Of a stretch of DNA of 64,000 bases, positions 12,362-62,448 are shown piece by piece (positions within the stretch are counted from its first letter, which is position 1; each line of letters opens with the position of its first letter). The notes beneath the pieces are model-generated. The model had not been told where the DNA came from and did not search any database. It was given only the letters and a program-made list of their open reading frames with translations. The DNA is from Hericium rajendrae (lineage: Eukaryota; Basidiomycota; Agaricomycetes; Russulales; Hericiaceae), in assembly GCA_033439255.1 (NCBI GenBank), contig CM065888.1, positions 310,001 to 374,000 on the forward strand, in the 5' to 3' direction. Both the position numbers and the translations under genes were made by a program.

Positions 12362-12579
12362 TGCAGTTTAAACAAGTAAAAAGTTTGAACAGAGATGAGA
12401 AAACATAGTAGATTGTCAGTTAGATAGTAGTACTGCAAAGTAGAACCATTAAATGACAGAAACACTTAGAAGAATCAGATACAAACAGAGTTGGAAGATG
12501 ATGATGCCAGTTGACTGTGCTGCTGACAGATATTCTCACAACTCTGAAGTTCTACACTTATTCTGATCCTGTCATGAAT

Positions 12580-15761: not shown

Positions 15762-16188
15762 TGCGCAAACAGAATGGCGATATCGTTCGCCAGTCGATTC
15801 GATGGACTGGCGACGCTGGGCTCGCCATAGATGCTTGTTTTTGTCTCTTGTCGCTTTGCGCATACCCATTCAATCATTGTCGGCATCGAGAGCCGAGCCA
15901 TAAGTGCGGGCCAGCACCCGTGTCTTGGACTCTCAAACATCTGGGGCCAGGGAGTATGGCCTACAGTCACCTAGATCATTGTACAAGTAGCAAATATTGT
16001 AATACAGTAGCGCTGGCGCTGCTGGCGTAGCTGTAGAACTGAGTTTACGCAAACTAGTGCCAATCATTGTCCCTTCGACGGGCAAAGAATGGGAAACCTT
16101 ACGGTTCAAGGTCTGTCAACAAAATAGTTCGGTCGACTAGTAATTATGGTATCCAGCACGTCCTATGCAAATTGTTGTTTGTCCGGCT

Positions 16189-30854: not shown

Positions 30855-33317
30855 TTAGAGGATGTGGGCTGCGCCCGCACCGGCCTCCTTCACACCGACG
30901 ACGTGACCGACGTGTGCGACGAGGCCCTCGGCACCGGCGGCGTCGACGAGGCCGCGGCCGACGCGAATACCGCCGACTGCGCCCTCGCCGACACCGACGA
31001 GGTGGCCGACGTTTGCGACAAGACCCTCAGCACCAGCGGCATCCAGGATGTCACGGCCAACTTTGATTCCGCCAACAGCGCCTTCACCGACACCGACCAG
31101 GTGGCCGACATTGGCGACGAGGCCCTCGGCGCCAGCAGCATCCAGAATGTCACGGCCGACATGGATAGCACCGACCGCGCCCTCTCCAACTCCAACAAGG
31201 TGGCCAACGTTCGCAACGAGACCTTCAGCGCCCGCGGTGTCGAGAATATCACGGCCGACGTGCGCAACGCCAGCGGCACCCTCCTTTACTCCAGCGATGT
31301 GACCGACGTGTGCGACGAGACCCTCGGCACCGACAGCGTCGACAAGGCCGCGACCAACATGGATGGCGCCAACAGCACCTTCACCAACACCGACGAGATG
31401 GCCGACGTTGGCAACAAGGCCCTCGGCACCGGCGGCGTCCAGAATGTCACGACCGATGTGGATGGCACCGACCGCGCCCTCTCCAACTCCAACGAGGTGA
31501 CCGACATTTGCAACGAGTCCCTCAGCACCGGCAGCGTCGAGGATATCGCGACCGACGTGGATGGCGCCAACGGCGCCTTCTCCGACGCCAACGAGGTGGC
31601 CGACATTAGCGACGAGGCCCTCGGCACCTGCAGCGTCAAGGATGTCACGACCGATGTGAAGGTCGCCAACGGCACCCTCCTTAACTCCAACAAGGTGGCC
31701 AACGTTCGCAACGAGACCCTCGGCACCAGCAGCGTCGACGAGGCCGCGACCGACATGGATGGCACCAACAGCACCTTCGCCAACTCCAACGAGGTGACCG
31801 ACATTTGCAACGAGTCCCTCAGCTCCGACAGCATCCAGAATGTCGCGACCGACGTGAGCAACACCCGCACCGGCTTCCTTGACTCCAACGACATGGCCGA
31901 CCTTGGCGGCGAGAGCCTCGGCACCGGCAGCATCGACGAGACCACGGCCAACGTGAACAGCGCCCTTCGCGCCCTCAGCAACACCGACGACGTGCCCGAC
32001 GTGAGCAGCAGCACCCTCGGCACCAGCAGCGCCAACGAAATGACGGCCGACATGAGCAGCTCCCTTGGAACCTTCGGCGACACCAACGACGTGTCCGATC
32101 TTGGCGGCAGCACCTTCAGCGCCAGCAGCATCGACGACGTGACGGAGGACGTGGAGACCACCGACGGCGCCTTCTTTGACACCGACGAGGTTTCCGACAT
32201 TGGCGACGAGACCTTCGGCGCCGACAGCGTCAACAAGACCGCGGCGACCAATATGGGCGGCGCCCTTGGCACCCTCGGCGACACCGACGACGTGACCAAC
32301 ATGTGCGGCAGCGGCCTCGGCACCAGCGGCGTCGATGTTGCGCGCAGAAACGGTGGCGGAGACACAGGCGTCGAGAGAAGCGTTAGGGATGAAACCTGCG
32401 ACACAAGCTGAGACCTTGCACTTCGCGGACTCGCAGGCGACGCTGTGGACGTTGGGAATGGTGGAGCAGTCGATACCGACAGCAGCGGCCACACCGGCGG
32501 CGTCGCGCGACGTGAGCGTGGAGAAGGGCGAGGGGATCATGCAACCACCGCCTGTAAACAAGATATCAGAAACTGACCAGCCGGGTATTAGATGGATAGG
32601 ACTTACAAGACTCGAGGTCAGACGCGACGTCGACACACTCCCATCCCTTGCCGTTAGAACCACCGGGGACACCGCAGAGCATCTTGCCAACATCGCACTT
32701 GGGAGGTCCGGAGCGACCACGGCGAGACGAGGGCGCCTGCGAACCGCACCCTTGGGGGAAGCTACCGCACTGGCCGTTGCACTCGGTCTTGGGCGCGGGG
32801 CAACCACAGCTCTGGGGGATGCTGTTCGTGTTGTTGGGGTCGACACCCTGCGCGTAGACGGGCTCGTAGCCGTCCTGGCAGTGGAAGTTGCAGGGTGCGT
32901 CCTTGGTCGCACACCATTGCACGGCGTGCTCAGGGTACTGGCAGTTCTGCTTGTTTTGGTTGCCGTTGATCTGTGAACCGCGTGTGAGAACATGGAATTA
33001 GACATCGTATAACAGAATCTACATACCAGGCCCTCGAGGATGTTGAGCACCTCGCGCTCGCCGGCAAGGAGGACACCAGCCTGGCAAATGGGGTTGGTCT
33101 TGACGAAGTCGGGGAGGATGGACAGGCACAGGCAGACGTCGAGGTGGCCGACGACGATGTTAAGGACATTGAGGTCGAGGTCGAGGCCGGCACAGACATC
33201 GACGAGGCCGCGCGATGATAGAGGATTATGGCGGGAAGTCAATGCGTTATGACGCGAGGAAGCGAGAGCAGAGCCCGCGCCCGCCAGGAATAGCGGGAGG
33301 GTAGTCGAGAACTTCAT
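30855..33317 (-). CDS. PriA-like secreted Cys-rich protein with 15 C-terminal 33-residue repeats
   Basis: Exons 33317-33027, 32970-32607 and 32551-30855 encode 783 residues. A signal peptide (MKFSTTLPLFLAGAGSALAS) opens the protein. The Cys-rich part matches the family of the Lentinula priA product: CNFHCQDGYEPVY, CGCPAPKTECNGQCG, FPQGCGSQAPSSRR, CDVGKMLCGVPGG, then CGGCMIPSPF, GIDCSTIPNVHSVACESAKC and CVAGFIPNASLDACV. After that come fifteen tandem repeats of about 33 residues with consensus DAAGAEGLVANVGHLVGV, a Gly/Ala/Glu segment and HVGRDIL. The last is cut short at HIL before TAA. Known PriA-like proteins end soon after the Cys-rich part, so the repeat tail is unusual. It is probably an extracellular or wall-associated structural protein expressed in fruiting or surface tissue, by analogy with priA. 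Confidence 0.88.
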   Translation of the reverse strand: MKFSTTLPLFLAGAGSALASSRHNALTSRHNPLSSRGLVDVCAGLDLDLNVLNIVVGHLDVCLCLSILPDFVKTNPICQAGVLLAGEREVLNILEGLVCRFCYTMSNSMFSHAVHRSTATKTSRTASTLSTPCNGVRPRTHPATSTARTATSPSTRRVSTPTTRTASPRAVVAPRPRPSATASAVASPKGAVRRRPRLAVVAPDLPSAMLARCSAVSPVVLTARDGSVSTSRLTSSLVSPIHLIPGWSVSDILFTGGGCMIPSPFSTLTSRDAAGVAAAVGIDCSTIPNVHSVACESAKCKVSACVAGFIPNASLDACVSATVSARNIDAAGAEAAAAHVGHVVGVAEGAKGAAHIGRRGLVDAVGAEGLVANVGNLVGVKEGAVGGLHVLRHVVDAAGAEGAAAKIGHVVGVAEGSKGAAHVGRHFVGAAGAEGAAAHVGHVVGVAEGAKGAVHVGRGLVDAAGAEALAAKVGHVVGVKEAGAGVAHVGRDILDAVGAEGLVANVGHLVGVGEGAVGAIHVGRGLVDAAGAEGLVANVGHLVGVKEGAVGDLHIGRDILDAAGAEGLVANVGHLVGVGEGAVGAIHVGRDILDAAGAEGLVANVGHLVGVGEGAVGAIHIGRDILDAAGAEGLVANVGHLVGVGEGAVGAIHVGRGLVDAVGAEGLVAHVGHIAGVKEGAAGVAHVGRDILDTAGAEGLVANVGHLVGVGEGAVGAIHVGRDILDAAGAEGLVANVGHLVGVGEGAVGGIKVGRDILDAAGAEGLVANVGHLVGVGEGAVGGIRVGRGLVDAAGAEGLVAHVGHVVGVKEAGAGAAHIL
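30858..32350 (-). repeat. Fifteen tandem 99-bp coding repeats
   Basis: The 99-bp units encode the 33-residue repeats of the PriA-like protein. Units near the middle and 3' end are almost identical, while those next to the Cys-rich part are more diverged. This is the pattern expected from repeated unequal exchange at one end. Confidence 0.9.
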
Positions 33318-36300
33318 CTCAACTCAAAACGACTCTGTGCGTAGGGTAAACAGTAAAGACAGATCCTCTTCTTCGTTAGGGGAGACGGAAGAAGAAAGAA
33401 AGGGAACGGGCGGGGGAAAGACCGACGGTGGGTTTGGGTATGAGAGACGGAGGAAGAGAGATGGAGAAAGTAGAAACTTCAGCTCGCCAGAATTTAAGCA
33501 TCCCGGCCCCAAGCGTCGGCAAGTTTGTCGAACGGCGGACAGAGAGGTGCACTGGCCTGGGCAGTCAGAACGTGTAAATGGTTCGGTGCACCTTCACAAT
33601 TCACCCCAGCGTACTGGCGTCCTCATCACACCGCCTATCACAGGGAAAATAGAGTGTTTAGTTCGCGGCCCGAGCGGGCGGGTGCTGAAAAAGCTAAAAT
33701 TACACGGCCCAGCCTTCCTCGTTGCCATGAGTGTGACGTTGAAGCGGAAGATCGAGCCCGCCAAGGGAGCAGGAAGCGGTCGGTAAAGCTGGAAAATAAA
33801 CAGAGTATGGGAAGAAGCCTCGGTTACTAAATTCGGCCTCAGCACTTGCCTCGTATAGGATGTCTCCGTAGCGCCAACCGCGATCCTGCTGCTTGCAAAT
33901 GGATCGTAAGTTGGGATGCTCATGTCCAAGTAGAGACCATCAGAGGTGCATTCAAAGTGAACATGAGCAAAGTACTGATCTCGAAGCTTTCGCATCAGTA
34001 TGCCAGCCGAAGTTGCCAAGACAGGTCGAGCGCGCGCTCCACGAAGCGAATTAGGGTCTGAACTGTGTGTCAACATAATTGGCGTATGGGTTGGGGCGGT
34101 CGGGGAGGCCATGAGCACTCGGGAAGACCGAGCGGCGGCCAGGCTGCGCCCTCTTTACCGACGGTCCGTCGGCGCTTGCGTGCAATTGGACCCGTCTCAC
34201 TGGCAGTTTGATGAACCTCGATGACGCAAGCAATTTAGCTGCGTGCCTGTTTGAAATGCAGCCTTGTTGAAATCAGATCGACTAAACGCGATCTCGCTGA
34301 ACCGTCCCGACAATTCGAATACTCAACTGCAACGAGTTTATGTCCTTCGTACAAAACAGACAGCGGTTCAGCGACCCGTCCTACAGCTGGACGTTCGAGC
34401 TCAAGCTGGGCTTGTGGACGTAATTTTGCGCGCCAAAGTCATACGCACGATGCTCCATGGAGAACACGACCATGCTCACGCGACCTCGAGGCGGCAACGT
34501 TGCAGCGCGCTGACTTGTTAGAAAAAGTCTGCTTGAGGTTCGAACCGTCACTGTAAATCGATGAGATGGAGATTATTGCAAGACCTTCTATGAGCTACTA
34601 AAGCTGTTCGCTGGGCTGGCGCAGCACCTCAGTGTTACAGTACGTGATACCTAGGAAAATCCGCATTGCGTACTTACCCGTGGACGAGACCACGCCTCGA
34701 GCAAGTGGGTATGATCATCGATCCCTATTGATGGTGTCGTGGATCACTTTCCATCAGATCCTTCCTGCCGTAAGATGAAGTTTGATACAAAATGTCCTGC
34801 GAGCCCGTGGTCTGCAGTCAGCCGTCGGGGACAGGAGTAGAAGACGGTGTTATGTTCCTCATGAACCTCAGCGATGTACGGCCAGAGTGCTGAGCGCTGA
34901 TGGCTCGGTTTTGTCGCAGGTCGTCTGCGATTCGCGACCTTCCGAGCGCTTTCTGGAGTCGAGTAACATCGGCAGTGGCGTCTTCGCTGACATTTTACGT
35001 GCTGCAGCAGTGAGCTGTCGTGAGAGCACCGTCACAGTAAAAAGAATGGGACGAACAAACGCAACATCGTGCATGACGCTCAATCTCAATGACACTGGGG
35101 AATCAGTTGTTCGACGAACGATAGACGTCAACTGAGGTAGGCCGAGCGGCATACGGAAGATTATTGCCGAATATTAAAGGCCAGCGTCAGGTTCGTTCCT
35201 TCGCCATGAGTATGTCGACCATGAATCTCATGCTTCATGAGGGATCAAGGCTAAGCGTAGATGTGGCGATTGATACCGCATTGCCTCGGTGATAAAGTCC
35301 ACGCTTCACGAAGGAATCCAGGCGCAGTCATCGTCTGCGCCGATGACAGTCGGATACGGTCATGCGTGCGATGTTGAGAAGATAGCCTGGTAAGGCCCAG
35401 GGCGCGACAGAGACTACACCAGTCCCATACCGGCGTAAGATCGACGCACTCGCCCCATGGAAGAGATTAAGGCCAGGAGAATAGAGTTTTCTGGATTCTA
35501 GAGATCCATCGTTCGAGCCGCGGAAGTGCCGCTGCTCCAGGATCTGCCGACTCACCGCAGTAGCCGCTCCGATCCTGAACAAGAGTGAGCGGAAAGATCT
35601 TGAAAAATCGGAGCGAAAGCTAGGACAGCCCGGCGACGAACAACATTTGATGATTTAAGCGCTGCGAGAGCAGCCAGATCTGCACGCGAACGAGCTGAGC
35701 TGGGAACCGAAGAGCAGGTCTTGATCCTCAAGAAGCCTGTAGCGAACCTCATGAATCATTTGCTAGCGGATCGGATAGCTGAAGTCCGCAGAGCAATAGC
35801 AGGCGGAAAGGCTGCGGATTTGAACAAGAGGATCTCCAAATCGCATATCGGAAACCTCGAAGATCAGTAGGCCATGGTACCGCGTCGTAAGGAGGATCTG
35901 GCAGCCATCCGCAGGTTGCAAGAGCGCGTTCGGCGTCGCGCATACAACAAGTTCAGGACAAGAGGGCATGCGAGAAAGGTAATTCTGATTTTGGATCAAA
36001 ACGACGGGGACCGCGGGCCGCCAGTAGAAAGGAACGCGTGAAGAATTTCGATCGGTGGCGGTGGTGGACGTCGAGAGCACAAGCGCAGACGGAGAGCTGA
36101 AGCGTGCGCATGTTGTTTAAAAGGCAGATGTGAAAGCCATTGCGTAGATGAGTGAGTCAGGAGGAGGATTGGATCAAGGTTGGTGTCTGCAGTGAAGTCT
36201 CTTCAGACACGCCGAGGTTGGATCAACGATACCGGGGTCACGCCACAGTTTTGCTAGTAGATTTCTACAGAAGGCCTCCAGAGACGGACGAGCCTGCGGT

Positions 36301-39561: not shown

Positions 39562-41161
39562 CTAATCCCACTCCTCCTCCTCCTCCTCCTCATCACTATC
39601 CCCCAGCTTCTTATTCCGCTGCAACAGCGCCGCCGCCAACGCAGCCGTCAAATCCCCTCCCCCGCCCCCACTTCCGCCGCTCTCCTCCACGGGCGGCGGC
39701 GGCGGCGGCGTCGCGCTCGCTGTCGAGTCGGTCTTGCGCAGCGTGTGCACGCCCTTGCCCTGGATGCTCGCGAGGAGGTCTCCGCGCCCGGGCTGCGGGG
39801 CGGGCAGTGCGATGGCGGGGGCGGGGGCGCCAGGTGCGGGGGGAGGGGGTGGCGGCGGGGGTGGGGGTGCGCCGCCGCCTGCGGGTGGAGGGGGAGGTGG
39901 GGGCGGCGGGGGCGGAGGCGCACCTCCTCCTGAGGGCGGAGGTGGAGGCGGCGGTGGAGGGGGCGGAGGGGGCGCGCCGCCTGAGGGCGCGGGCGGTGGT
40001 GGCGGCGGGGGCGGTGCACCGCTCGGACGGCCCGGAGGCGGGGGAGGCGGGGGCGGGGCCGCTGCAGGACGGGATGGCGGGGCAGGCGTGCGCGATGGCG
40101 GGGGCGGTGCGCGTGCAGGTGATGGTGCTGCGGGCGGGGGCGGCGGGACAGGAGACGCGCGCGGTGGCGGGGCTGGGGATGCGCGTGGGGGCGGCGCGGG
40201 CGAGGAGCGCGCAGGCGCAGGCGCAGGCGGGGGCGGGGGCGCGGGGGGCGCAGCGCTGGGGACGGAGGTCGTGCGCGCGTGGCTCGGCTGCGGGGGTGGA
40301 GGCGGCGCGTGCGACACGGGGCGGCGCGGCGCGGGGGGCGGGGGTCTCGACTTCTTGCGCTCGACGGCGGCGGCGGGAATGGGCGTCTTCTGCGCGTCGC
40401 GCACGAAGCCCTTGATGAACTCCATGTTCTGCTGGATCGTGCCGGAGTCGACGCCGTGCCGCTCGAGGTCGGTGAGGAAGGTCGTCCAGGAGGGGTCGAC
40501 GCCCGTGCTCGTGAAGCCTTTCTGTTCGTCGTAGCCCATGTGCGCGACGTGCTTGAACTGCGTGGGCGCGCTGATGAGTGATTTGTCGATGCGCGAGCCA
40601 GACTTTTTCTTCGCCGTGCCGGAGGAGGGGGACAAGGCTGTGGATCTCGCTGGAAGGGAATGATATTAGCAACGTGAGGGTAATGGAGGAGAATAAAGGA
40701 CCTCTGGTAATACCTCCGGATATATCCTTCCGCGTCGTAATCTTCTTGTAGAACGTCTTCGCCTCGCCTTCATCCGCGAAGACGACGCCGATCATGCAGT
40801 CCTACAAAACTTTTGATCAGCACATATTCTCATATGGACATGCGATAGCACCTACATCACTCTCGAATGAGTGGAAGAACGGCCGATCCTGCCAGTACTC
40901 GAACCCTTCCCAGAGCTCATGCTCCCACACGACGCCCCGCGTGCCACCCACGTCGACCATGCGCAGGTAGTACGCGCCGCGCGCCTTGTCCGTGACGAAC
41001 ACGAGCGCGCCCTGCAGGCCCGCGTACGCCCATGCGTTCGGCGTGGGATGGGCGTAATAGATGCGCGCGAGCGCGGCGGTATGGATCTTGTTGTGACCCT
41101 TGGGAAGAGAGGCCTTGATTCTGGCTTTGTCGTCTGCGCTGAAGGTGGATTGGGCGGGCAT
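39562..41161 (-). CDS. LAS17: WASP/Las17-type actin nucleation-promoting factor
   Basis: This protein activates the Arp2/3 complex at endocytic sites. Exons 41161-40856, 40801-40714 and 40649-39562 encode 493 residues. The WH1/EVH1 domain covers about residues 1-130 (IYYAHPTPNAWAYAGLQGAL, then WEHELWEGFEYWQDRPFFHS). A clear CRIB motif follows, ISAPTQFKHVAHMG, for Cdc42 binding. Animal WASPs have this motif, while Saccharomyces Las17 has lost it. Next is a very long polyproline region for SH3 proteins and profilin. A WH2-type actin-binding block (GRGDLLASIQGKGVHTLRK) and an acidic tail ending in EEWD for Arp2/3 complete the protein. Domain order is complete and there is no break. Confidence 0.93.
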
Positions 41162-42059: not shown

Positions 42060-43661
42060 ATGGGCGCGTTATTCTCATGTATGTGCATAGGTGGCCAATC
42101 ATACTCAGATGACACGCGCTCGAGTCCGAGCCGCTTGCATCAGTCCGATCCGTCTCCCGCTGGACTGAGTATGTTCATGTTCTTTGCATTCAAATATTTT
42201 GGTCACGCTGAACTATGGGGCTATAGAAGACTTAGGACCGGAGAAAACTCGTCACGTCAACGGTATGTGTTTATTCGCATCTTAGACATCCACATTTATG
42301 GGTAACCATAGATGGACCTTCTTGCGCCGTGATTGGCGTTGCGAGCCCTCGTCCTCGGCTGCAGCCAATTATTCCGGCAAGTGATAGCCATCCTGGCGAA
42401 CGTGTACCCCGACGTCTCTCAGGTGAGCGGGTTATACATCACTTCGCTGTGGATAAATTGCCTTCATACTGATTCATAGCTCCTTTGTGTAGTGAGTTCG
42501 CAACTTTCTGGTCAAGCTGTCCCTGTCTATCGTGGTTCTCGTGTCTCTCTCGCATCCTCGTGTTTGATAGAGACTCCTTCACATAAGCGTCTACTCCTCT
42601 CAAACAACCTTGGCTCAGCCAAGGTTCGCGAGACAGCACGCAGGCTTCTGCGATATAGCAACCCTGTTGGCAAAATGACTGCAGAGCGCAAATATTGTAT
42701 CTTTTACCTCGCTCTATCTCTACATCCCTCCGCTCGTCACATCTCGTACCAGCCCCAGCCACGAGTTATAGAATCCAAGCCGCAACGACCAGAATCAGCA
42801 TCTTATTCCCTCCAAGATCACCATTCTTGTCTAACAAGGGATGTCAAGGGCGAGGAATGTCTCTTTCACTCAAAAGAGATGCAAATCCGGGCACGGAATA
42901 TGATATCTCTCCTCTGGCTCATTGGATGTGGCCTTGATGGTCGCTCAACGTTGCTCAAGTCCGCATTCCTCGACGGTTTTCATGCTGCCCGTTGGATATG
43001 CGAGGAAGAGGTCGACATCGATCTCGGTGATAAAGTCTATGCGGCTCTTTCGTCAATCACTGTCGAATGGTCTGCACAACTGCTTGAGATTCCATCAAGC
43101 AAGCTTTATCCTTATGATAAGGATGGCCTTGCCCCGCTTGAGGTCCCAGATCGATCCCTCGACGAACCCATATACCTGGATATACCATTAAACAAAGGTG
43201 GAGCACGTGCACTCAACGTGAAGTATGACTATCTAGACCTTCTCAAGCCATCTATCGATGGTCTCACCGCTATACCTACGACCAAACGTACTTGTTTCAT
43301 TGTTCAAGGAATCGCCGGAGAGTTTGGTATCGGCGATGTCAGTGAGCATAATGGTGCATCGGTGAAATGGACAGTAGCGCCTTGCTTCGGTATGCTTTTC
43401 TTTTGGTGTCATAGCATATATGGCCGCTGACGAGCATATATGTTAGATGACGATGAGCGTGCATTAGAAGCTGCACTGTGTGCAGCCCGTCAGAACGCAT
43501 ACGACGCTGAGGCCCCAGCCCGTCAGCGCGCATTTGAAGCTGTGATTGCAGCCCGTCAGCGCGCATCAGAGGCAGAAGGGCGTCGGAAAGCATTAGAGGC
43601 TTCCAAGATCAGACCCAGATATGCAGCCCGTTATCGCAGTGCATATGTGGCCAATCCTTAG
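42060..43661 (+). CDS. Paralogue-cluster protein 1, lipidation-type N terminus and coiled-coil tail
   Basis: The family is not recognised. Exons 42060-42168, 42227-42262, 42312-42422, 42493-43389 and 43447-43661 fit in phase and give 455 residues. The start MGALFSCMCIGG has Gly-2, Ser-6 and nearby Cys-7 and Cys-9, a pattern suited to N-myristoylation plus palmitoylation, so membrane attachment is likely. A disordered Pro/Arg segment follows. The globular part shares motifs with the next two genes: FYLALSLHPSA, then RARNMISLLWLIGCGLD and a final beta-rich block near TCFIVQGIAGEFGIGDV. A short charged tail carries imperfect AARQRAxEA repeats and is probably helical. Relative to its neighbours it has an insertion of about 60 residues after the SLHP motif. 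Confidence 0.68.
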
Positions 43662-44838
43662 TTTACAATGGTACGTAGGCGGAACTCATTCGTCTGACGC
43701 GAAGCTAATCTGTCCTCGTATACGTTAGGCTGTGAACCATGGTTGATTGTCACGCACACTTCGTAGTTTTCTGTATCAGTTGCAATGAATCTGGTCTCGC
43801 AGATACGATGGTGGGTTTGTGATGACGCGATGACGTCCTCACTAGTTTTCGATGCATATCTGGCGTTGTATCAACCTGCAGAGGGACGACGAGATGTGTC
43901 CTTCACTGGATACTATGTTCCTAACACAAAGCAGACAACCCGACGAGGCTCAACCACCCAACCATTGGAACTATGTGTTTGTCTTCCGTCATCTGAATTT
44001 CCATATTGGCAATTATCTATAGGGGTGATCATACCTAATTGAGGCCATTATATCTTTGTTTTACTTCATCTATTGCGACTGATCTCGGAATTGTGTCGAA
44101 CAAACATTGCAGGGTGATTCAGTGAAGGACGGTGGTTGCCTTCATATGGGGGTCTGTCTGAAGGTTCGTGTCTTTTTCTTAGTCATAGCGGGTTTGTACT
44201 GACTATTTATCATAACTGCTGCGTCTCGCCTGCGGAGTCCTGTGAGGTCGCCTAGGCTTTGTTGCACCATCTGGAAATGCATTGACAGTCAGATTCCGAC
44301 CATTGCTCAATGCATCCGGGGGTCGGAATCTTCGTACGCGCGGGGAACATGGGCCCTTCGTCGGATATCTTTTCGAGCCATAAACACCATTCCCCTGCGC
44401 CCCAAATAAGATCGCGATCGGCGCTCTCCGCTATCTCCCCCTGATTTCGGTGTTCTCATGCCTCATGACACTTCCATGGTGATTCCGTGTTCATTCCGTG
44501 AGCTTGTATTTCGGAAAGACGCCCGTGTTCTGATCCTTTCTCGCGACGAGATTAGAAAGGGAACCTAGATACTGGTCGCACTCTCTGACGATCGTGTCTA
44601 TTGCCATCTAGCATTTGCTGTCTCGTCTGGCCAGCTTAGCGAACGAGTCGTCCTTAGTGCTCACTCTACGCTTGCATCCTGTTTTAGAGGTCCTTGATCG
44701 CGGTTTAGGCTGTTCGTACCCTCCTGCTTATGCGCGTACTCATCTCACTGACACAACCTCGCATTTTCAGGTCTATCGCATCGTTTCGCACCCAGTTGAT
44801 ACCTCTAGCTCCAGTCACTGTTCATCGCACCATTATCC
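43662..44838. other. Spacer inside the paralogue cluster
   Basis: A plus-strand opening at 43785-44042 has no supporting signal. The remainder is the promoter of the gene at 44839. Confidence 0.35.
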
Positions 44839-46828
44839 ATGGCACCTCCACACAAGCGGGACCACAAGCCCAACCCTCGCGCCGAGCTCACGTACAAGTC
44901 GCTCGCCTCGCACCCCGCGCTCGCCTTCATGCGCCCACCTGACACTCCGTGCCCGAAGTGGGAGAACCTGGACTACTACACGCACGGCATCGACACTCGT
45001 GCGGAGGAGCACTTCCGTGGGGCGGCATACTACGGCGAGACGGGCACCAAGGCGCGCGTGATGATGCTCTTCCTGTGGCTCATTGCGCAGACGCTCCCCC
45101 CGGATAGCGACGCCTCAACACTCGTCAGCGGCGCGGTCGCGCAAGGCCTGCCCGCCGGGGAGGACATCGATGATTACGAGGAGGTGATTCACGGGCTCGT
45201 GGATACGTTCCGGCGTCCGCTGCCGGATGACATCAAGACGACGCTGGAGAGTCTCTGCCCAACGCGGTCGGATGCCGAGTTCGAGGCTTTCATGGACCTT
45301 GTGCGCGAATCATACAAAGAAGACGTGGTGTTTGACTACGCCGTTGAGGACGCGCCATCGGCGCTGTTGAACGTCCTCGAGGGCATCGTCATCGTGCCGC
45401 GCAAGCAGGGCACCGAGCGCCTCATCGCATGGTGCATGGACAAGTTCTTCATGGGCCGCTGGGTGAACATAGGTGGGGAGCCTAGTGATGCGGTATGCTG
45501 GAGTGCCCATATCTCCAGTGAGTCCTGTTCAGCTTATTTCTCTTCCTCTATTCACACATCTGCTTCAAGCCCTGCCCACCGCTCCAACTGAGGCCCTGGT
45601 TGTAGCAAAAGAGCCTCTCCCGCCAGTAACGGAAGCTGCCGAGGCGCCGACGATCAAAGTGGACGCCCCTACGAAGGCTGAGGAAACGACGAAACTAGAA
45701 CAATCATCCAAAATCGAAGGAACAGCGCAGGTCGGAGAGGAGACGAAGACCGAGCAGCCAGCGAAGGAATCGCAGACGAAATCTCCGGAGAAACTTGATG
45801 TCCCGGCCGCGACGAAGTCATCTTCAGGAGGAATTTCGCCCGCAGAACCGAAGCCAAAGTCAGGATGGAAACGATTCAGCGTAGCTAAGGGGGTTAGTCG
45901 CTCCGCTACCTTTCTCAAACCGACCAAGTCGCGTTCAGATACGAAGGTCGCCGCATCCCCGACAGCCACCACCGAGACTTTGGTCAGTACGACGGCAAAG
46001 GAGGAGGCGAGATCGATCTCTTCGCCGCACCACGTCGCATTGTTGTTGCGAGAGGAGAAAGGTACCGCGGATGCCGGAAAGGTCAAGGCTGTCGCAGAGG
46101 CTACATTGAAGCTTGCTCGCAAGGTCGAAAAGAAGAAACTCGACGACCGACGAGTGCTAGTGTACCTGGCTCTCTCCATCCATCCTCTACTCGATACCTC
46201 CAAAGGCGAGGAACCTGCAGCCGTATGGATCGAGCGTGTCAATCAGACCTTTGCCGAGCTCAGCGACAAGCGTCTGTTCCGTTCGGTGGCGGATGAACAG
46301 ACCTTCGCCCTTCCACGCTTGCAAAAAATGCTATCGGCGCTCTTGCTCGTCGGCAATAGCCTCAGTGATATTCAACTCTACTCCATGATTTCTACCACCA
46401 TCGAGGCTGCGCTTGTCCACGCGAAAACCATTCACAAGAATTCTGACGCAGAGGATCCATCTACTGTCCTGTTTTCGCTTGCTGAGGTGGTCGATGAAAT
46501 TGCAACCTCCATCCACGGTTTCGGATCACCACCTGCACACGCGAAGAAGGGCACCGTCGTCACTGCAAAGCGCATCGACCTACAGATCAACGGCGCCAGC
46601 ACATATGTACCAGCATCCTCGGAGACATATCTCCTGGCCGGACATCGACTCTACGACCTTAAAGTGAACTCATCCGCGCTGATTACGCTGCAACGCGATC
46701 CTCTGATTCCGAAGACGCAGCTGACCAAGGCTATCATGGAACACCTTGTGGAAGAGGTCGGCATTGGTACTTGGGAAACCCCTGCCCTGGTGAAGGAGGC
46801 TCGCAATCATACCAACGGCACGGCTTGA
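44839..46828 (+). CDS. Paralogue-cluster protein 2, two domain units
   Basis: Exons 44839-45517 and 45570-46828 join in phase and encode 645 residues. Unit 1 (about residues 15-227) starts TYKSLASHPALAFM and includes NLDYYTHGIDTRAEEHFRGA, TKARVMMLFLWLIAQTLPPD and RLIAWCMDKFFMGRWVNIGG. A Lys/Glu/Pro linker follows with repeated Thr/Lys/Glu motifs. Unit 2 is more diverged: KVKAVAEATLKLARKVEKKK, LVYLALSIHPLLDT and LPRLQKMLSALLLVGNSLSD. Unit 2 resembles the N-terminal part of protein 1 more than unit 1 does. No signal peptide or membrane helix is evident, so it is probably cytosolic. Function is unknown. The shared domain with its two neighbours points to local duplication and fusion. Confidence 0.72.
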
Positions 46829-48056
46829 GGTGTAGCCGTGCCATCGCAATCCATTCGTATCCCCTTTCATCCTTGTCAGCGTTATTCCTTCTTTGTGGAC
46901 TCGAAAGTTCTGATAGATTTTCGGATAGGGACGTGATATCTAACGCATCGTCTCCGACCCGTGTTTCGTGTTTCGAATCTCAATTATGCTTGCTTTCTTT
47001 CCCAGCGGTGACATATTATTTCGAGATGACGACCAGGGTCAGCCTTTGAACTCTAAAAAGAAATCGGCTTCCACAACGGGGCGCAGTTGTGAAGGGCAGG
47101 GAGGAAACAATGGGGATGATCATTCAACGGATACAGTTCCCGGAAGGTCCTCTCTTAGTTATCAGCACTATTTCTTGAATACAAGGTATTCTGCTGACGT
47201 GAAGTCCTTCCTTCTTTGATCCCGTCGGAGGACGACCTTGTACACTTCCAAGCTTCTCTCGACTTCGAGTTGCTCGTCGACAATATCTCAACTGTCTTCT
47301 CTCTGCCCAGCACAGCTAGCACGACTACCTAACGACTAAAAAGTAGTGCGACATCGGCCACGTTCCCACTGACGCATCGGAAATGACGCATCGGAAACGA
47401 AAATATCTGAGAAAGGGACGGAAAGTTAAATACAGGTCAGCTAGCCGCTCGGAATCCTGTTCCGCCTCGTATCGCCTGTTGTATCTCAACGTCAAGAACG
47501 TCCGGTGATGAGCTCTGCCCACGCCCTCTTTCTCCATTGGACCATTTTGCTCGCGCCCATTCCCAACGCGGTTCATCATGGCAGGTCTTCCATGCATGCG
47601 AGGTCTGGAAGCGTTTCAGAACAGTTCCGCCTGTATTCCATCGCCTGGGGTGCTGAACAACCTCAGGGTCCTCTTGCGTATTGGCTAGGTCTTCGGAAGC
47701 TTTTCCTGGGATCAGGATGCTTCCTGACAAGCGTACGATGTATACCTCGAGGCATTCACGCCGCTAGAATGCCATAAAGCACTTTCACGCCTCCTTTCCT
47801 GCTTTTTCTTTCCTCTCTCAGGTAGCAAAGACGACGATAGCGCTGCGGCATCTGCGATTTGGTCCATCTCCTTTGTCTGCTCTGTCGTCAGCCTGGTTTT
47901 GTGCATCAGCTTGTCCGCTATCTAGTTGGCCATCTTCAAGGCATTCTTTTTCTAGATTTTCTAGGCATTTTCTCGGTAAGTGCCCTCTCTTCATATCTGC
48001 AGGGTTCATTCGACTAAGATGCATTCATAGAATCCTTACCATTCATTTCTGCCACG
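46829..48056. other. Spacer inside the paralogue cluster
   Basis: No supported gene. Short openings on both strands lack splice signals. The right end is the promoter of the gene at 48057. Confidence 0.35.
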
Positions 48057-49961
48057 ATGGTCCTCTTTCCGACCATCGACTTCGCGCCCACCATCAGAGA
48101 ATTCAGAGACATCGTCGTCACTCTCGCGCTATGGAGGAGCAGAGTCAAAAACGAGAAGGTCGTCCGCAGAAAGGCAGTCTATGAGGCGCTTTCGAAGCAC
48201 CCAGCTCTCGAGCAAATGGCGCTCAAGCTACCCGGAGCGACGCGATGGGAGAAACTGGACTATTACAGCCGCGGTGGGGCACAGCGCAAGGAGAAGCATT
48301 TCCGGCAGGCGGCGTTCTACGGCCAGACTGGCGCACGGGCGCGGGTGATGATGCTGTACTGCTGGATCGTCGCGAGCTTGCTGCCGCCGGAGGCAGACAT
48401 TTCCAACCTTGTGACCCACGCGATCCATTCGGGCCTCCCGGCAGACGCGAAGGAGTCGGGCGCATACATGCCTATCGTGAAGGACCTTGTCACGATGTTC
48501 AAGACCCCTTTACCGGATTTTGTGAACGCCAAAGTGACCGACGAATGCCCGAACTATGCTTCGGTCGACTGGGATGCCTTCATTACTGAGGCGGAGGGGC
48601 GCTTCGGCGACAACCTGGTCAAGTTCGACGTGCAGGACAGCCCGTCGATGCTGTTGAACCCGGATTTGCAGCCGGGACAGATCATCGTTCCCGTCGATGG
48701 CTCCTCATATCGTCTCATGATCTGGTGTGTAAAGGCCCTGGAGCTAGGTCATCCTATCACCGGCGACGGCACCCCGGTGCTCAGCGCACATTTCAACGTG
48801 TACCTCCCGAGTACGTTGTCTCCACCACCCATTGTGACAAGCTAACACCTTCCTTCAGGCGACTGGAAAGCTAGCAAGCCAAAGCCAAAGCGCACATTAT
48901 CGTTACCAGCCCCGGAACCTACGTTGCTTATAATGCCCAATATGCAACATGCTGAGACATTCTCCGGCCGCCCCACCTCACCTCCACCAGCCTACACCAG
49001 CACGCGCCCCACTTCGATGCACTTACGACAGGGCACAATGAACTCTATCAAGAGTGTGACCTCCGCCGCAAGCAAGCTCTCAGAGAAGGCGGAGAAGCTT
49101 GGACCGATCGCGAGCAAGTTCTCGGATCAGGTCGAGAAGCTGGGCCCGCTCGCAAACAAGTGGTCGGAGAAGGCGGGGCCGCTTGCGGGCAAGTTCTCGG
49201 AGAAGGCCAGCGGATGGCTCCATGCCGCAGGAAAAGCCATTCCCGCCGGCGACCTCACTGCAGCGATCGTGGACACGGTCGCAGATGGTGTCGGCATAAA
49301 CTCCGTGACGGCGGCAGCGGCGGGCTCGTTGCTCGGTGGCGGCAAGCATCCTCCGGCCGCTGGCCCTGCTCCCCCACCGGGCAAGGTTGCGGCTCCCGCT
49401 GCAGCTCCAGGTGTAGCCCCAGCTCCAGAATCAGCCCCAGCTCCAGGTGCAGCCCCAGCTCCAGTGGCAGCTCCAGGTGCAGCCGCAGCCACACCAGCAC
49501 CAGGCGCCGCAGCTCCAGTCGCAGTCCCAGCAGCAGCCCCCGGCGTCGCCCCAGGCCCACCGCCAGCCGGTGCGGCAGCCGGTCCAAGACCACCACAGCC
49601 AAACGGTTTCGACGCACTGGCCGACGTCCTCCTCACCGGTGTCACAGGCACCGCGCTCTTCTCGGCCTTTTCTGGTCCCACCGCCCCCGACGCCCCTGCC
49701 GCTGCCGCTGCCCCCGCTGCCGCCCCCACTTCTGAGCCGGCGACGACCGACGCAGGGCCCAAGACTCTTGAGGCCGAGCCTGCTGCCGCCGACGCCGACG
49801 CCGACGACACGACGCAACAGACCGAGCAGGCGCAGACGAGCGTGTCCGATCCCTCGTCCTTCTTGAGCAGCATGCTGCCATCATCCGCGCAGGACATGTT
49901 TGGACAGACGGATTTCTCTGCGGACCAGGGCATTCTTGCTGATGCCGGTGTGTGGGATTGA
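48057..49961 (+). CDS. Paralogue-cluster protein 3, amphipathic repeats and Ala/Pro tail
   Basis: Exons 48057-48810 and 48859-49961 encode 618 residues. The N-terminal domain parallels unit 1 of protein 2: VYEALSKHPALEQM, KLDYYSRGGAQRKEKHFRQA, ARARVMMLYCWIVASLLPPE and PVDGSSYRLMIWCVKALELG. The intron at the end of the domain is in the same place and phase as in protein 2. After it come a Pro-rich stretch and about four imperfect repeats of EKLGPIASKFSDQ type that would form amphipathic helices. A glycine/alanine segment (VTAAAAGSLLGGG) and a long Ala/Pro low-complexity tract follow. The tail is acidic and ends GILADAGVWD. Family and function are unknown; the tail could mediate membrane or self-association. 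Confidence 0.74.
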
Positions 49962-50857: not shown

Positions 50858-51563
50858 TCAGACAACTCTTACCTTTCCAGGTTCATCCGGGGATGAGGAC
50901 CTAAGGAAACTGAATTAACCACAAAATGCAACAATGAGCTTGAGCTTCACTTACGAAGAACCCGAAGGGCCGTCCTTCCGAGTCGTACTGGAAGATGTTA
51001 GGTCGCCTGACGCAGATCCACCCCACTTGGTCTAAAAAGATCCAGTCGTCGTTTGCACAAACCACAGAACGCGCTCATGACACACCTTTCGCATATTGAT
51101 CCGCGCGAGTCTCAAGGCATGCTTTTCCTCCTCTGCTTCCCGCCATTTCTCCTCCGCTTTCCGCCGTTTCTCTTCTATCTCCAGCCGTAAGCCTGAAGCT
51201 TTTAATGCCTCGATGTTAGCCAGATCTTCAAGATCCCCTGAAAGATACTTGTCGTCCTCCTCGACATTGTCTCTGCGAGGTACTTGAACCTGGCATTGTA
51301 GACCGTGTTCGCGGAGTACCCAACCAGTTGAGCCACCTCTTCGTACGATCTCCCGTTTTCGTACAGCTGGCGCATCAAGGCCCTCGACGTATGAGTCGTT
51401 CTTGCCGTCCTGAATGAGATCAGATTATATCCGACGACATATATTCCCTTACAAGTATCGAGACACTGACTGATCCGCCGTAACAAACACAGTGCTATAG
51501 GAAAAGTGCGTAGATCAGGCTTGGAAGCGGAAATAGTTACATGGGTTTGGGCGCTGGTATCAT
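50858..51563 (-). pseudogene. HTH / coiled-coil gene with an apparent 1-nt frameshift
   Basis: Two good frames abut on the minus strand. The first, entered from ATG 51563 through two short introns, reads SRALMRQLYENGRSYEEVAQ and LVGYSANTVYNARFK, a helix-turn-helix. The second begins VPRRDNVEEDDKYLSGDLED and continues as a long Glu/Lys/Arg coiled coil, then a Ser-rich tail to TGA 50858. The intact relative at 58237-60428 has the same order in one frame (QAVSKALVNGYKVPDNLDED), so the break here fits loss of one A in an AAG/GTA context. A 17-nt intron at the spot would be too short to splice. It could be a genuine pseudogene or an assembly error. Confidence 0.55.
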
Positions 51564-51978
51564 GGTTGGTGACCGTGGTATTTTAGAACCGATATCGACC
51601 TTCCCGATGACGCCGGGCGGGTAATCAGGAGAAAATCTTGTAGACGCCTTCGCACTCCTACCGAGTGCTCTTCCCTGTCCTATATGAGGGTAAGGTTATG
51701 AAAGACTTCCAATAACACCTACGAGTTATGCGGCATTGACAAGTGAAGAAAAGTGGTGAGAGGGTTTGGAGGAAGTTGAAAACCGGTGAGACGCTTCAGC
51801 TGAAAGTACGAATCGCTTCTAAGCAATGACAAGTTGCTGACGTGCCGTGATCTGGAATTGTCGAGATGTTTGACATACCAGCGACTTTACCGTCTAATTG
51901 TCACGCCAATACACCTCGGACAGCTCGGCGTCGCTCCTTACAAAACTTTCCTCGACCGCGATGGCACGTAGCACACAT

Positions 51979-52604: not shown

Positions 52605-53164
52605 TGTGCTGTAACTCAGGCTGTATCTGTAACTACGGTGCGACGAGAGATGCGGGGGATGATGCTCTGCTCGTGCATCGCGAAGCCTAGCTTATATATG
52701 CGCCAGCACATGAATAATGTTTTGTTTGAATTCTCATAGAGACCGAAGAAGGCGCAGCGGCTCCTAAGCAACGCAGCGCGATCTCAGAGGCGCACCACAC
52801 CGTGACCATATGATGTACGCTTGGATCCGCGCCTCCTGACCGCGACACGGACCTTCTCGGGTGCCCATACCCGGCCTAGCGCCGCCCAAGTCTGACCGAC
52901 TTGTCGACGCAGCGCAACGTCGGGGCGCCGCGGACGGTCGCCTGGGGCTGACAGTGACTTAGCTCACGGACATATCGCAATTCGCCAATCATACATATTC
53001 ATTCGCTGAGTGATTTAGTGACTTCTGAGATCGACGAACACGAAACGCCCCGAAACGACTAACAAGACAAGAATAGAAGATGAAAACGGAGGAAAACGTG
53101 TCCGTATCGGGTACTATCGGATGGGCGCGACTAGCAGGATGCACGAACTCCACGGGGGAAGCGA
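52605..53164. other. Spacer upstream of the DUF1348 gene
   Basis: This holds the DUF1348 promoter and the calmodulin 3' flank. Nothing else was seen. Confidence 0.4.
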
Positions 53165-54218
<1,054 letters not shown>

Positions 54219-58236: not shown

Positions 58237-60428
58237 ATGAGCGCCATGCGTGCTGGTCCGTAAGTACCTCAGATCTTCTTCTCCCACCTTTCGCTGAGAA
58301 ATTGCAACGGCACAAGGAAAAACAAGAGGCTAGATCGGTATCGCAGAGCACTTGCCCGCGACATGATTAGACGAGGCGAGACAAAGTCCGACACCGCAGG
58401 CTTCCTGGGGTGCTCCTGCCAAGCAGTATCAAAGGCCTTGGTCAACGGGTACAAGGTCCCCGATAATCTCGACGAAGATGCAGATTATCTCTGTGGCAAG
58501 CTTGGCGAACTGGTAGACGTCGACGAGCTCGAAGACTCTGGGGCACAGGTGAAGCAAGAAATTGTAAAGGACGAGACGGACGAGATCAAGCTTATCGGTC
58601 ATAAGCGTGGGCGCACGCACATGCGAATGTCGTCTGCCGCGTCCAGCGACTACGAGCTCACCTCGGACGCGATGTTCGTCGACGATGGCGATGTCGGCTC
58701 AGATTCTGGCGGCGAATACAACGACAACAGCCAACCTCAAGAGCGGCAGTCTGCTAGGCTCCGCAACATCAAGGCGCCGTGTAAGTCTGCGTTTGCCTTG
58801 TACTCGATGTGGTCTGACGCTCTTTCAGTCGTGCGGATGTCGGTCTCTCCGATCTGGCAGGCACGCCGGAAGCGCGCTCGGACACACTCCCGGTCGGCAC
58901 AATCTCAGCCGGTTGTAGAGGTGTCGAGCGAGGACGAGGACGAAAATGGGGACGAGCAGGCTCGTCCATCTGCTGTAGTCACTCCGGCCAAATTTGAACA
59001 GCCAAAGAAGAAACCTCGCTATGACGAGCACACAGTAAATTCTGGTATATTCATTTCGATACTTTTAGTCGCAAATACTCATATGATTGCCTAGTGCAAA
59101 GACATATGGAGTACACCCAGACACCGAAGCAGGAACGGAGGGAAGCCAGCATCTCATCTCAAGGGGTATGTGCAGCATGTTCTAGTCTCCGATTACTGGG
59201 GCTTACTTCGGCTTACGGTATTTCTATGAGTAGTATTTCCCAGCTCTGCCCGCACCGCCGGTTTCCGCTGTAGGCCGCTCCACTCGCTTCGACGTCTTTC
59301 GTGGACAGCAAGAGCGCAAAGATCCAATTCAACGCCCATCTTCATCAATGTCGAACAGCCGCGCAAAATTATTCGATATTTGTGTACGTGTTCCATCCGG
59401 CATTTCGACAGGACTGAGCGCAGACGGATTTCATGTCTCAGAAACAACGAGTTGCGTCCACCTTGGCTTCGCAAGACAGACTTCATCGAGACTCAATGCC
59501 AGATGCGACTCAGCTGCTGAGGAATGGCCTGCAGCATGTCAGTGCCATTAGCGTCGGGCTACTACACCGTTCCAGCTCTGATTATTTTCCGTCGATGCAG
59601 TGCAAGGCGTCTTCTAGCTCTTCGGCTGCGGAGAATGGCATATATGGTCATTCGACAGGCAAGGACAAGCCGGCGGCCAAACGGCATAGCCTCGTGCGTG
59701 CGTTGCCATTACAGAAGGTGTCTTACGATAGGCGCATGTCCTGCAATAATGTTAATTCTCAGTTTCTTCCGGTGTCAAGCAGTTTTGCTAACCTTTCTAT
59801 TATAGTCAGCGGCACCTGCCCCTCCGTTATCCGCTGTCATTACCAGCTCTTCAGAGAGCTCGAAAAAGAATATAAAACCTGAGGTGATTGTCCAAGCGAA
59901 TCGCCCGTTTATAAACGAGCTGCAGGTGCTGCCTCAATCGAAGATGCCGTCTAATGTGCGTATGCGTATGCGTACTGGCTGGGCTCAGAACTAGAGGAGT
60001 TCATTGATAGATGTCCGTCTTGACAGTCTGTCATTCGAAGCACTCAAGAGTGCACACCTGCCGACACGATCACCAATTCAGCTTCTTTGTCAAAGCCCAC
60101 AAACAATACACTTCCAGGAAAGTCCGACGAATGGAATAAAATTACCACAGTAACGGACGTCGACCAGAAGAACGGAGACATCAAAAACATGAATATTCTA
60201 TTCGACATGAACTTGGACGAAGAGCACGCTGACGTTGTGGCCGCGATCAACGTCAACACGGCGTCCGACCTCAGGAGGTGGAGCGAGCTGGATGAGCAGG
60301 CCCATCGCTTGATTATCGACACGGACCTGCGCCGCAAGGGCATTTCGACCTTCCGATACGTGAAGCTATTGACTGCTGTGAGGGGACAGAATGACATGCG
60401 GGTTGGGGCGGGTTGTCAGACGTCTTAG
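58237..60428 (+). CDS. HTH-domain nuclear protein of unknown function, eight exons
   Basis: Exons 58237-58259, 58317-58780, 58829-59044, 59095-59165, 59234-59383, 59424-59693, 59806-59955 and 60027-60428 keep phase throughout and encode 581 residues. The N terminus has a homeodomain-like helix-turn-helix: RRALARDMIRRGETKSDTAG and CSCQAVSKALVNGYKVP, then an acidic DNLDEDADYL segment. The middle is disordered with acidic runs (SSEDEDENGDE) and basic runs (PKKKPRY) that could be nuclear localisation signals. The last exon holds a conserved block, EEHADVVAAINVNTASDLRR then LDEQAHRLIIDTDLRRKGI. HTH, basic and acidic regions suggest DNA binding, perhaps of transposase origin, but this is inference. 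A truncated copy lies just downstream. Confidence 0.75.
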
Positions 60429-61065
60429 CTCGCTCTGCTACTTTGTAGGGGCCCCCCAAAAAATCTGATACAGAGGCTTCCTGGACAAATGAGATGTACT
60501 TGAGCAATCTGTTAGTAATAAATTCCGTCTTGACAGCCTGTCATTCGGAATGCTCAAGAACGAATAAGTACCTTCCGGCCGATATGCAGTCCGGCGCAGG
60601 TTCCGGCGCAGCCGCCGTGCCAGGACGCATTCCATTTCCTTGTGTTACGTCATCGCGCCCCTTCCCGCCCTCCCCGCGCATCGTCCCCTGCCGCCCGTCG
60701 CTTGCATTCCAATTGCGCCAGTCACCATGGCTTCGTCCCAACGTCTTTTTTCGCACTCTTCTCTCCTCCCACCATCATTCTCCCTCTGCCGTGGACCGCC
60801 CCCTCGCCCGTAGTGCCAACTGTTCTCGCGAAGAACGCAGGAGACAACGGCTTGCTGAAAACCCAGGACTTCGCACACTCTGCGCGACCAACTACAAGGA
60901 TGTCCTTCACGCTCGCCGGAACGCTCAACCCACTGTGGCGGCCCCGGCCCGGGCCTGGCCGAAGAGAAAGATGTCGTGAGCTACGGCTCACGCGGAGCGT
61001 CTGCCTTCCGTTCCTTTCGTATAAAGCCTTGAAGCTCATACACATTCTGTAGGGGATCGGAGCCA
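60429..61065. other. Spacer with a stray exon-8 fragment
   Basis: At 60525-60561 a short sequence (CCGTCTTGACAGCCTGTC and onward) repeats the intron 7/exon 8 junction of the HTH gene, also present at 62268 in the pseudogene. A coding-like reading near 60838-60980 (RQRLAENPGLRTLCATNYKD) has no clear start. Confidence 0.45.
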
Positions 61066-62448
61066 CTTCAGACGCGATGTTTGTTGATGACGGCGATATC
61101 GACTCAGATTCTGACGGCTAACTCAACCACGACACGCAATCTCAAGAGCGGCAGTCTGCTAGGCTCTGCGGCATCAAGGCGCTGTGTAAGTCCGCATTTG
61201 CCTTGTACTCAATGTGGTCTGATGCTCTTTCGGTCGTGTGGATGTCAGTCTCTCCGACCTGGTAGGCGTGCTAGAAAGCATGCTCGGATATGCTTGCAGT
61301 CGGCACAATCTCAGCTGGTTGTAAATAATTCGAGCGAGAATGGGGACGAGGGTGAGTTTGAGGACGAGAAGGCTTGTCCATCTACTGTCGTCACTTCGGC
61401 CAAAGTCAAGTAGCTAAAGAGCAAACTTCGCTATTCGACGAGCTCACGGGTCAGCATTATATAGTCATTTCGATACTTTAGCCCGCATTGAAGTGCTCAT
61501 ATGGTTGTCTAGTGCAAAGACACATGGAATGCACCCCGACACCCAAGCAGAAACACGAGAGGCCAGCCAGCACTTCATCTCAAGGGGTATGTAAAGCATA
61601 CTCTTGGCTTCGATTACTGGGGCCTACTTCAATTACAGTATTCGTATGAGTAGCATTGCGCAGCTCTGCCTGTGCTATCGGTTTTGACTGCAGGCCGCCC
61701 CACTCCCCTTGCTTTCTATCGTACACAGCAAGAGCGCAAATACGCAAATCAACGATCATCTTTGGCAACGCCGAACAGACGTGCCGATATATCAGATATT
61801 CATGTATGTTTTCCGTCCGACATTTGAGTCAACAGCAGTGAGCAGATTTCGTGTCTCAGAAGCTACGATTCGCGTCTACCTTGGCTTCGCGAGACAGATC
61901 TCATAGAGAATCACAAGGACAAGCTGGCGTTGAAACGACATAGCCTCGTGAGTGCGTTGCCGTTACAAAAATTGTCTTACATTGCATGCATGTCGTGCAA
62001 CGATGTTGGTCCTCGGTGTCTTCCGGTGTCAAGGAGTTTTGCCAAACTGATTCTTTCTATCACGGTCAGCAGTACCTGCCCTCCTGTCATCCGCTGTTCC
62101 TATCAGCTCTTCAGAGAGCCCGAAAAAGAAGGTAGAACCCGAAACAGTTGTCCTAGCAAATTGCTCGTTTATAAATGAGGCGCAGGTGTTGCTTCAATCG
62201 GAGATGCCGTCTAATGTGCGTGTGCGTATGTGTACTGATTGGGCTCAGAGCAGTTCCTTTACCAATTTTTTGTCTTGACAGCCTGTCGTTCGGAGCGCTG
62301 AAGAACGCACAACTTCCGACGAAGAGCACACCGACCTTATGGCTGCGATCAACGCCAGCACGGTGTCCGATCTCGGTAGATGGAGCGAGCTGGACGAGCA
62401 TGTCCATCGCTTGATTATCGACACGGACCTTCACCGTAAGGGCATTTT
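61066..62448 (+). pseudogene. Truncated, decayed duplicate of the HTH gene
   Basis: This copy follows 58663-60350 of the intact gene through exons and introns alike but lacks the HTH part. It has stop codons early (GGC TAA after the DSDSD acidic run; TAG in place of CAG in the basic segment) and lost about 220 bp from exon 6 and about 190 bp from exon 8. The terminal block EEHTDLMAAINAST then LDEHVHRLIIDTDLHRKGI remains readable. Because introns are retained it arose by DNA duplication, not retrotransposition. Many differences are C-to-T or G-to-A at CpG sites. Confidence 0.85.

What the first reader, a model, noticed from the sequence alone, without database searches (positions are those of the whole stretch)
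42060..49961. Tandem family of three genes built on an unrecognised domain
Three consecutive plus-strand genes share ordered motifs: a Y-x-A-L-S-x-H-P start, a (N/K)LDYY block in two of them, an (R/K)AR-x-M-hydrophobic-LWLI helix, and a beta-rich (I/V)-P-x(5)-R-L-x-x-W-C end. The central gene has two units. Each gene then has its own accessory part: lipidated N terminus plus coiled coil, charged linker, or amphipathic repeats plus Ala/Pro tail. This modular divergence around a constant core is what a lineage-specific signalling, immunity or stress system would look like. I know of no described family with these motifs.
Basis: partly seen in the sequence, partly recalled or inferred. Interest (0 to 1): 0.75.

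Follow-up and report, generated by a model that had tools for sequence, protein, structure and literature searches.

The report
Local orphan gene family in Hericium
Three neighbouring genes of a Hericium mushroom carry four copies of a protein domain that no library searched here recognises and of which no further copy was detected in its genome; it looks like a small home-grown family of helical adaptor-type proteins, real but of unproven function.

Summary
Three plus-strand spliced genes (42060-43661, 44839-46828, 48057-49961) contain four copies of one domain of about 200-260 residues. Gene 2 unit 1 and gene 3 are unmistakable paralogues (38% identity, E 6e-49). Gene 1 and gene 2 unit 2 resemble each other clearly (0 of 2000 shuffles reach their score) and join the first two with moderate support (profile against profile: 0 of 300 shuffles; some single pairs fail). 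The tree is ((2a,3),(1,2b)), so types alternate B-A-B-A along the chromosome, as if an A-B cassette had been duplicated and trimmed. In each gene the first unit ends at a phase-1 intron. No Pfam, NCBIfam, PADLOC or PHROGs family and no significant PDB sequence match was found, and no fifth copy in the 46.8-Mb genome (with a search that also misses gene 1 from its own sister), which I identified as Hericium rajendrae NPCB A08. Two structure predictions failed (pLDDT about 40), and no other fungus could be searched, so breadth and function stay open. Best guess: non-enzymatic helical adaptors, one acylated at its N terminus. The 'signalling, immunity or stress system' reading is untested. A tandem orphan family is an ordinary kind of thing.

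The parts
42060..43661 (+). Gene 1: five exons 42060-42168, 42227-42262, 42312-42422, 42493-43389, 43447-43661; 455 aa; N terminus MGALFSCMC, C-terminal Ala/Arg/Glu-rich repeat tail
   Evidence: splice model with GT-AG introns and open frame; not checked against RNA
42603..43388 (+). Unit 1 (type B) in gene 1 (left border set by me; alignment to 2b begins near 42615)
43390..43446 (+). Phase-1 intron after unit 1
   Evidence: GTATGC...CTGAC...TAG; phase counted from the coordinates
43481..43566 (+). 33-bp tandem repeat that codes part of the charged tail of gene 1
   Evidence: 2.6 copies, 77% match
44839..46828 (+). Gene 2: exons 44839-45517 and 45570-46828 (alternative: second exon from 45606); 645 aa
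44839..45516 (+). Unit 2 (type A, 2a) in gene 2
   Evidence: 38% identical to the gene 3 unit, E 6e-49; E 1.2e-41 in the genome search
45518..45569 (+). Phase-1 intron after unit 2
   Evidence: phase counted from the coordinates, frame open
45570..46051 (+). Charged low-complexity linker between the two units of gene 2
   Evidence: read from the translation
46052..46825 (+). Unit 3 (type B, 2b) in gene 2 (left border set by me)
48057..49961 (+). Gene 3: exons 48057-48810 and 48859-49961; 618 aa
48147..48809 (+). Unit 4 (type A) in gene 3
48811..48858 (+). Phase-1 intron after unit 4
   Evidence: GTACGT...CTAAC...CAG; phase counted from the coordinates
49067..49205 (+). Repeats (42 bp, 33 bp) that code an amphipathic segment, consensus by eye about NKFSEKAEKLGPLA
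   Evidence: hydrophobic moment about 0.5 (no decoy control)
49388..49740 (+). Ala/Pro-rich tail of gene 3, low complexity (borders approximate)

Best explanation
A small tandem family of paralogues found at one locus of this genome. SHOWN: four copies, two of type A (gene 2 unit 1, gene 3) and two of type B (gene 1, gene 2 unit 2), in the order B-A-B-A; no further copy detected; no match in the family libraries. PROBABLE: A and B descend from one domain. INFERRED: an ancestral A-B (or B-A) cassette was duplicated head to tail; gene 2 kept both units, gene 1 kept B, gene 3 kept A, and each gained its own tail beyond the intron that closes its first unit. INFERRED, weaker: the domain is a mainly helical, non-enzymatic protein-binding module, and the proteins are adaptors or scaffolds. 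Gene 1 would sit on membranes through an N-myristoylated Gly2 and palmitoylated Cys7/Cys9, gene 3 may touch membranes with its amphipathic repeats, and gene 2 would bridge partners with its two units. Family claim about 0.85; A-B homology about 0.8; adaptor mechanism about 0.35.
For: Homology. Unrooted tree ((2a,3),(1,2b)) with 100% of 200 bootstraps. The first unit of each gene is followed by a phase-1 intron, and unit 2b ends at the stop codon, so module borders coincide with exon or protein ends (coordinates; phases counted by hand). The DNA form of Y-x-A-L-S-x-H-P has 15 matches in the genome (4 for the pattern read backwards), 3 of them within this 5.5-kb stretch; in the 3-kb loci around the other 12 no frame of 50 or more residues holds the motif, and the best four-unit HMM score there is E 1.2. 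No family hit and no catalytic motif seen by eye. Models, low confidence: helices dominate. Acylation-type N terminus: 8 of 6436 ATGs by chance.
Against: A-B homology rests on modest scores: the 2a+3 HMM puts gene 1 at rank 36 of 10,002 (E 33) and 2b at E 0.29; profile 2a+3 against gene 1 alone scores 0.9, below the decoy mean of 2.8, and against 2b alone 11.9, reached by 4 of 433 decoys by the printed top scores; 1-3 is reached by 184 of 2000 shuffles and by 24-26 of 433 decoys, 2a-2b by 29 of 2000 and by 6-25 of 433. hhalign's own probability for profile against profile is 5.8%. The introns follow the last shared His at different distances (2, 6 and 13 residues, counted on A3). The 2b model was computed on an alignment that held 2a, so its similar helix order is not independent. 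Membrane contact by basic-hydrophobic peaks is not supported: peaks as high occur in 24 of 53 decoy ORFs. The 5' exons of gene 1 are short, one is 36 bp, and gene 1 has GC3 0.45 against 0.67-0.68 in its paralogues and 0.70-0.78 in three other exons of the window, so its model or its intactness may be wrong.
Confidence: 0.4

Rival explanations
1. Two unrelated small families side by side: A (2a, 3) and B (1, 2b). The shared Y..L..HP and [IV]P...G marks are chance resemblances between helical proteins.
For: HMM of A finds neither B unit clearly; gene 1 against 3 and 2a against 2b lie within the decoy range; genome searches with one type do not return the other at E up to 10; hhalign probability 5.8%.
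Against: Full-length colinear profile alignment with 0 of 300 shuffles and 0 of 433 decoys as high; profile B against 2a alone 17.2, decoy maximum 13.2 of 433; same intron phase after the domain in genes 1, 2 and 3; adjacency and alternation.
Confidence: 0.17
2. A fast-evolving self/non-self or immune locus.
For: Tandem duplication, domain shuffling and strong divergence between copies are common in such loci (general knowledge).
Against: No Pfam or PADLOC match of any kind in the five exon proteins scanned, so no recognised immune domain; no allele data; nothing specific found.
Confidence: 0.1
3. Young or drifting orphan genes without a fixed function; gene 1 decaying.
For: Gene 1 GC3 0.45 against 0.67-0.68 in its paralogues; low-complexity tails; no copies found elsewhere.
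Against: Frames of 455, 645 and 618 codons are open across plausible introns; 38% identity between 2a and 3 with many identical W, H, P, G and Y suggests past selection.
Confidence: 0.2
4. Stress or lipid-droplet coat proteins: the gene 3 repeats act like an apolipoprotein- or LEA-type amphipathic segment and the core is an anchor.
For: 14-residue amphipathic repeats, moment about 0.5 (no decoy control, and other parts of genes 1 and 2 reach 0.6-0.7).
Against: Only gene 3 has them; the closest other genome match to this segment is E 0.35.
Confidence: 0.08
5. Domesticated remains of a mobile element or virus.
For: Orphan helical proteins with low-complexity tails sometimes are (general knowledge).
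Against: Only four units found in the genome, all here; spliceosomal introns; no hit in viral contigs with the type A pair or in PHROGs, which covers viruses of bacteria and archaea only.
Confidence: 0.04

Closest known systems
Taxonomically restricted (orphan) tandem gene families of fungi, as a class (general knowledge)
   Same: Adjacent paralogues, no recognised domain, low-complexity accessory parts
   Different: Here the copies alternate in two subtypes and one gene has both; this is a detail, not a new class; restriction to a taxon was not tested
Dually acylated (myristoyl plus palmitoyl) peripheral membrane proteins, for example G-protein alpha subunits (recalled)
   Same: Gene 1 N terminus MGALFSCMC fits Gly2 myristoylation with nearby Cys (pattern recalled; frequency)
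   Different: No GTPase or other known domain in its large exon; works-like claim only
Fungal NLR and heterokaryon-incompatibility proteins (recalled)
   Same: Local duplication and modular make-up
   Different: No Pfam match of any kind

Membership tests
One new homologous domain family of four units | Significant pairwise or profile similarity that links all four | tested here: met
   2a-3 E 6e-49; 1-2b 0 of 2000; A against B profiles 0 of 300 shuffles; but 1-3 and 2a-2b are weak pairwise and the 2a+3 HMM does not find gene 1
One new homologous domain family of four units | Same predicted fold | tested here: inconclusive
   models with mean pLDDT 39.6 and 41.2
Any Pfam, NCBIfam, PADLOC or PHROGs family | Profile match at E 1 or better | tested here: not met
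   0 families for 5 exon proteins in each library; the short exons 1-3 and 5 of gene 1 were not scanned
A protein solved in the PDB | Sequence or profile match | tested here: not met
   none for 2a at E 1 or the 2a+3 profile at E 5; best for the four-unit profile is E 0.32, taken as chance; genes 1 and 2b not searched singly
Dually acylated membrane protein (gene 1) | Gly2 in a myristoylation context with nearby Cys | tested here: met
   MGALFSCMC; 8 of 6436 ATGs by chance; rests on the gene model
Dually acylated membrane protein (gene 1) | Acylation and membrane location in cells | not testable with these tools
   needs experiment
Lineage-specific to Hericium or Russulales | Absent from other fungi | not testable with these tools
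   no fungal collection could be searched; only this genome, viral contigs and prokaryote contigs
Fungal immune or allorecognition locus | Known immune domain or high allelic diversity | tested here: inconclusive
   no recognised domain; allele data not available

The most novel reading that the evidence does not exclude
An undescribed helical domain makes a three-protein membrane-linked assembly: a lipid-anchored B protein, an A-B bridging protein and an A protein with an amphipathic coat segment, whose A and B units pair with each other, so that one duplicated cassette became anchor, bridge and coat.
Probability: 0.07. Interest if true: 0.6.

Novelty: new member of a known kind. Interest (0 to 1): 0.28.

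Why it matters
If A and B units really are one domain, this locus is a compact record of how a mushroom built, duplicated and re-tailed a domain of its own, and the four-unit profile gives a seed for a new family. Beyond that it is one of many unannotated fungal families (general knowledge); it would matter more if relatives were found across Russulales or if the three proteins proved to act together.

Tried and rejected
Structure prediction of 2a with gene 3 and of 2b with the other three gave mean pLDDT 39.6 and 41.2; I ran no fold search on them because such models give meaningless matches. The basic-hydrophobic membrane idea was dropped after the control: 24 of 53 decoy ORFs of 300 or more residues reach 0.72, the peak of gene 2 (gene 3 0.75, gene 1 0.81; scale values recalled and not checked). 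Remnants of further units in the window with the four-unit HMM: none beyond the four; next best E 3.1 and 4.4. Paralogues elsewhere: searches with each of the four units (E up to 0.001, up to 10) and a 24-place pattern gave only the four units; these searches also failed to return gene 1 from 2b and the reverse, so an equally diverged fifth copy could be missed. Outside relatives, type A pair only: 75 pattern matches in viral contigs and 118 in prokaryote contigs, none confirmed. 5.8S rRNA search for naming the organism failed. Literature: searches found 0 papers; one search listed 8, seen as listing only, with no title on these genes; so I can only say that these three searches found no description of the family.
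Full report
WHERE THIS IS. The window lies at C11:310001-374000 of a genome of 46,767,965 bases in 19 contigs. A paper on Hericium rajendrae NPCB A08 (PMC10608310; I saw passages and the whole of section 3.1) gives the same total length, 46,767,965, a largest contig of 5,307,752 and N50 3,238,877, which are the lengths of C1 and C6. All 13 of its 13 clusters with an NRPS-like core gene contain at least one of my PF07993 matches at the same chromosome number and coordinates; 27 of the 31 matches fall in them. So the organism is the edible basidiomycete Hericium rajendrae (Russulales by general knowledge), and the window lies between a fungal-RiPP cluster (Chr11 197,542-257,730) and an NRPS-like cluster (492,774-559,259) of that paper.

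GENE MODELS. Gene 1: exons 42060-42168, 42227-42262, 42312-42422, 42493-43389, 43447-43661, 455 residues. Gene 2: exons 44839-45517 and 45570-46828 (or from 45606), 645 residues. Gene 3: exons 48057-48810 and 48859-49961, 618 residues. All introns of these models are GT-AG and 48-70 bases long; the alternative in gene 2 is 88; the paper's mean is 74. No RNA evidence was available. Gene 1 needs a start upstream of its large exon: similarity to 2b begins near 42615 and the large exon has no in-frame ATG before that point, which argues for 5' exons, though not for exactly these. Gene 1 has GC3 0.45, genes 2 and 3 0.67 and 0.68, three other exons of the window 0.70-0.78.

WHAT IS SHARED. Eleven columns are invariant in the four-way alignment: Y, L, H, P of the first motif, R and M around the central helix, L, L, the Pro and Gly of the last region (19 residues apart), and a His near the end; in so divergent an alignment some of these may be chance. 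The DNA form of Y-x-A-L-S-x-H-P has 15 matches in the genome (4 for the pattern read backwards); three are these units; in the 3-kb loci around the other 12 no frame of 50 or more residues holds the motif, and the best score of the four-unit HMM there is E 1.2.

MODULE BORDERS AND ORDER. The first unit of each gene is followed by a phase-1 intron (43390, 45518, 48811), at 2 to 13 residues from the last shared His; 2b ends at the stop codon. The unrooted four-unit tree is ((2a,3),(2b,1)) with 100% of 200 bootstraps. On the chromosome the types run B (gene 1), A and B (gene 2), A (gene 3). The simplest history is duplication of a two-unit cassette followed by loss and by new tails: a 33-bp repeat in the gene 1 tail, 42- and 33-bp repeats and an Ala/Pro tract in gene 3. 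This is inference from four sequences.

COPY NUMBER AND RELATIVES. Searches of the whole genome with each unit return only these units. Their sensitivity is limited: 2b did not return gene 1 nor gene 1 2b, and one type did not return the other, at E up to 10. Remnants in the window: none. Viral and prokaryote contigs, searched with the type A pair: none confirmed. No fungal collection could be searched, so 'lineage-specific' is untested. Pfam, NCBIfam, PADLOC and PHROGs: 0 families at E 1 or better for the same five exon stretches (the large exon of gene 1 was given from 42492 or 42495). PDB by sequence: none for 2a and for the 2a+3 profile; two chance-level matches, E 0.32 and 2.9, for the four-unit profile.

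STRUCTURE. Two AlphaFold2 jobs gave mean pLDDT 39.6 (2a) and 41.2 (2b). Both are mainly helical, with a helix holding the invariant Met and another after the invariant Pro, but the second used the first as an alignment row and neither model is usable.

HOW IT MIGHT WORK. I saw no catalytic motif and no enzyme family matched. A constant helical core with changing tails suits adaptors or scaffolds. Gene 1 starts MGALFSCMC, which fits N-myristoylation at Gly2 with palmitoylation at Cys7 and Cys9 (rule recalled). In 255,900 bases of control sequence 85 of 6436 ATGs with 12 open codons fit the myristoylation pattern and 8 also have two or more Cys in positions 3-10. Gene 3 has amphipathic 14-residue repeats (no decoy control). 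Membrane contact by basic-hydrophobic peaks has no support beyond chance. I commit to 'helical adaptor family, gene 1 membrane-anchored' at about 0.35-0.4.

VERDICT. Orphan tandem families are common in mushrooms (general knowledge), so interest is modest.

Noticed in passing
30855-33323 (-): Large secreted-looking repeat protein: CPL1-like region (Pfam E 1.3e-10) with a 99-bp (33-residue) tandem repeat, 11.5 copies in 30898-32031; one further stretch of the repeat on C4, E 7.5e-11.
   Followed up: partly
58264-59094 (+), 51032-51582 (-), 61033-61413 (+): Helix-turn-helix-like protein at 58264-59094; no Pfam match at 0.01. A genome search with its first part finds a clear relative about 104 kb away on C11 (E 1.5e-12) and weak ones on C14 and C1 (E 0.004-0.06). 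The other two window frames look alike by eye, but this search did not return them at E 0.1.
   Followed up: partly
39562-40665 (-): WASP-type protein exon next door: PBD match (E 1.1e-8), a WH2 match below its curated cut-off, and long proline tracts.
   Followed up: no
52989-53790 (-): Frames that look like calmodulin EF-hands (recognised by eye, not searched).
   Followed up: no
10302-18180: No open frame of 180 or more residues is listed here, and GC is lower (0.40-0.48); possibly transposon-rich.
   Followed up: no
whole genome G000: No 5.8S rRNA match was found in the held assembly, although the paper reports 38 rRNA genes; the search scored only 39 of 1533 candidates.
   Followed up: no
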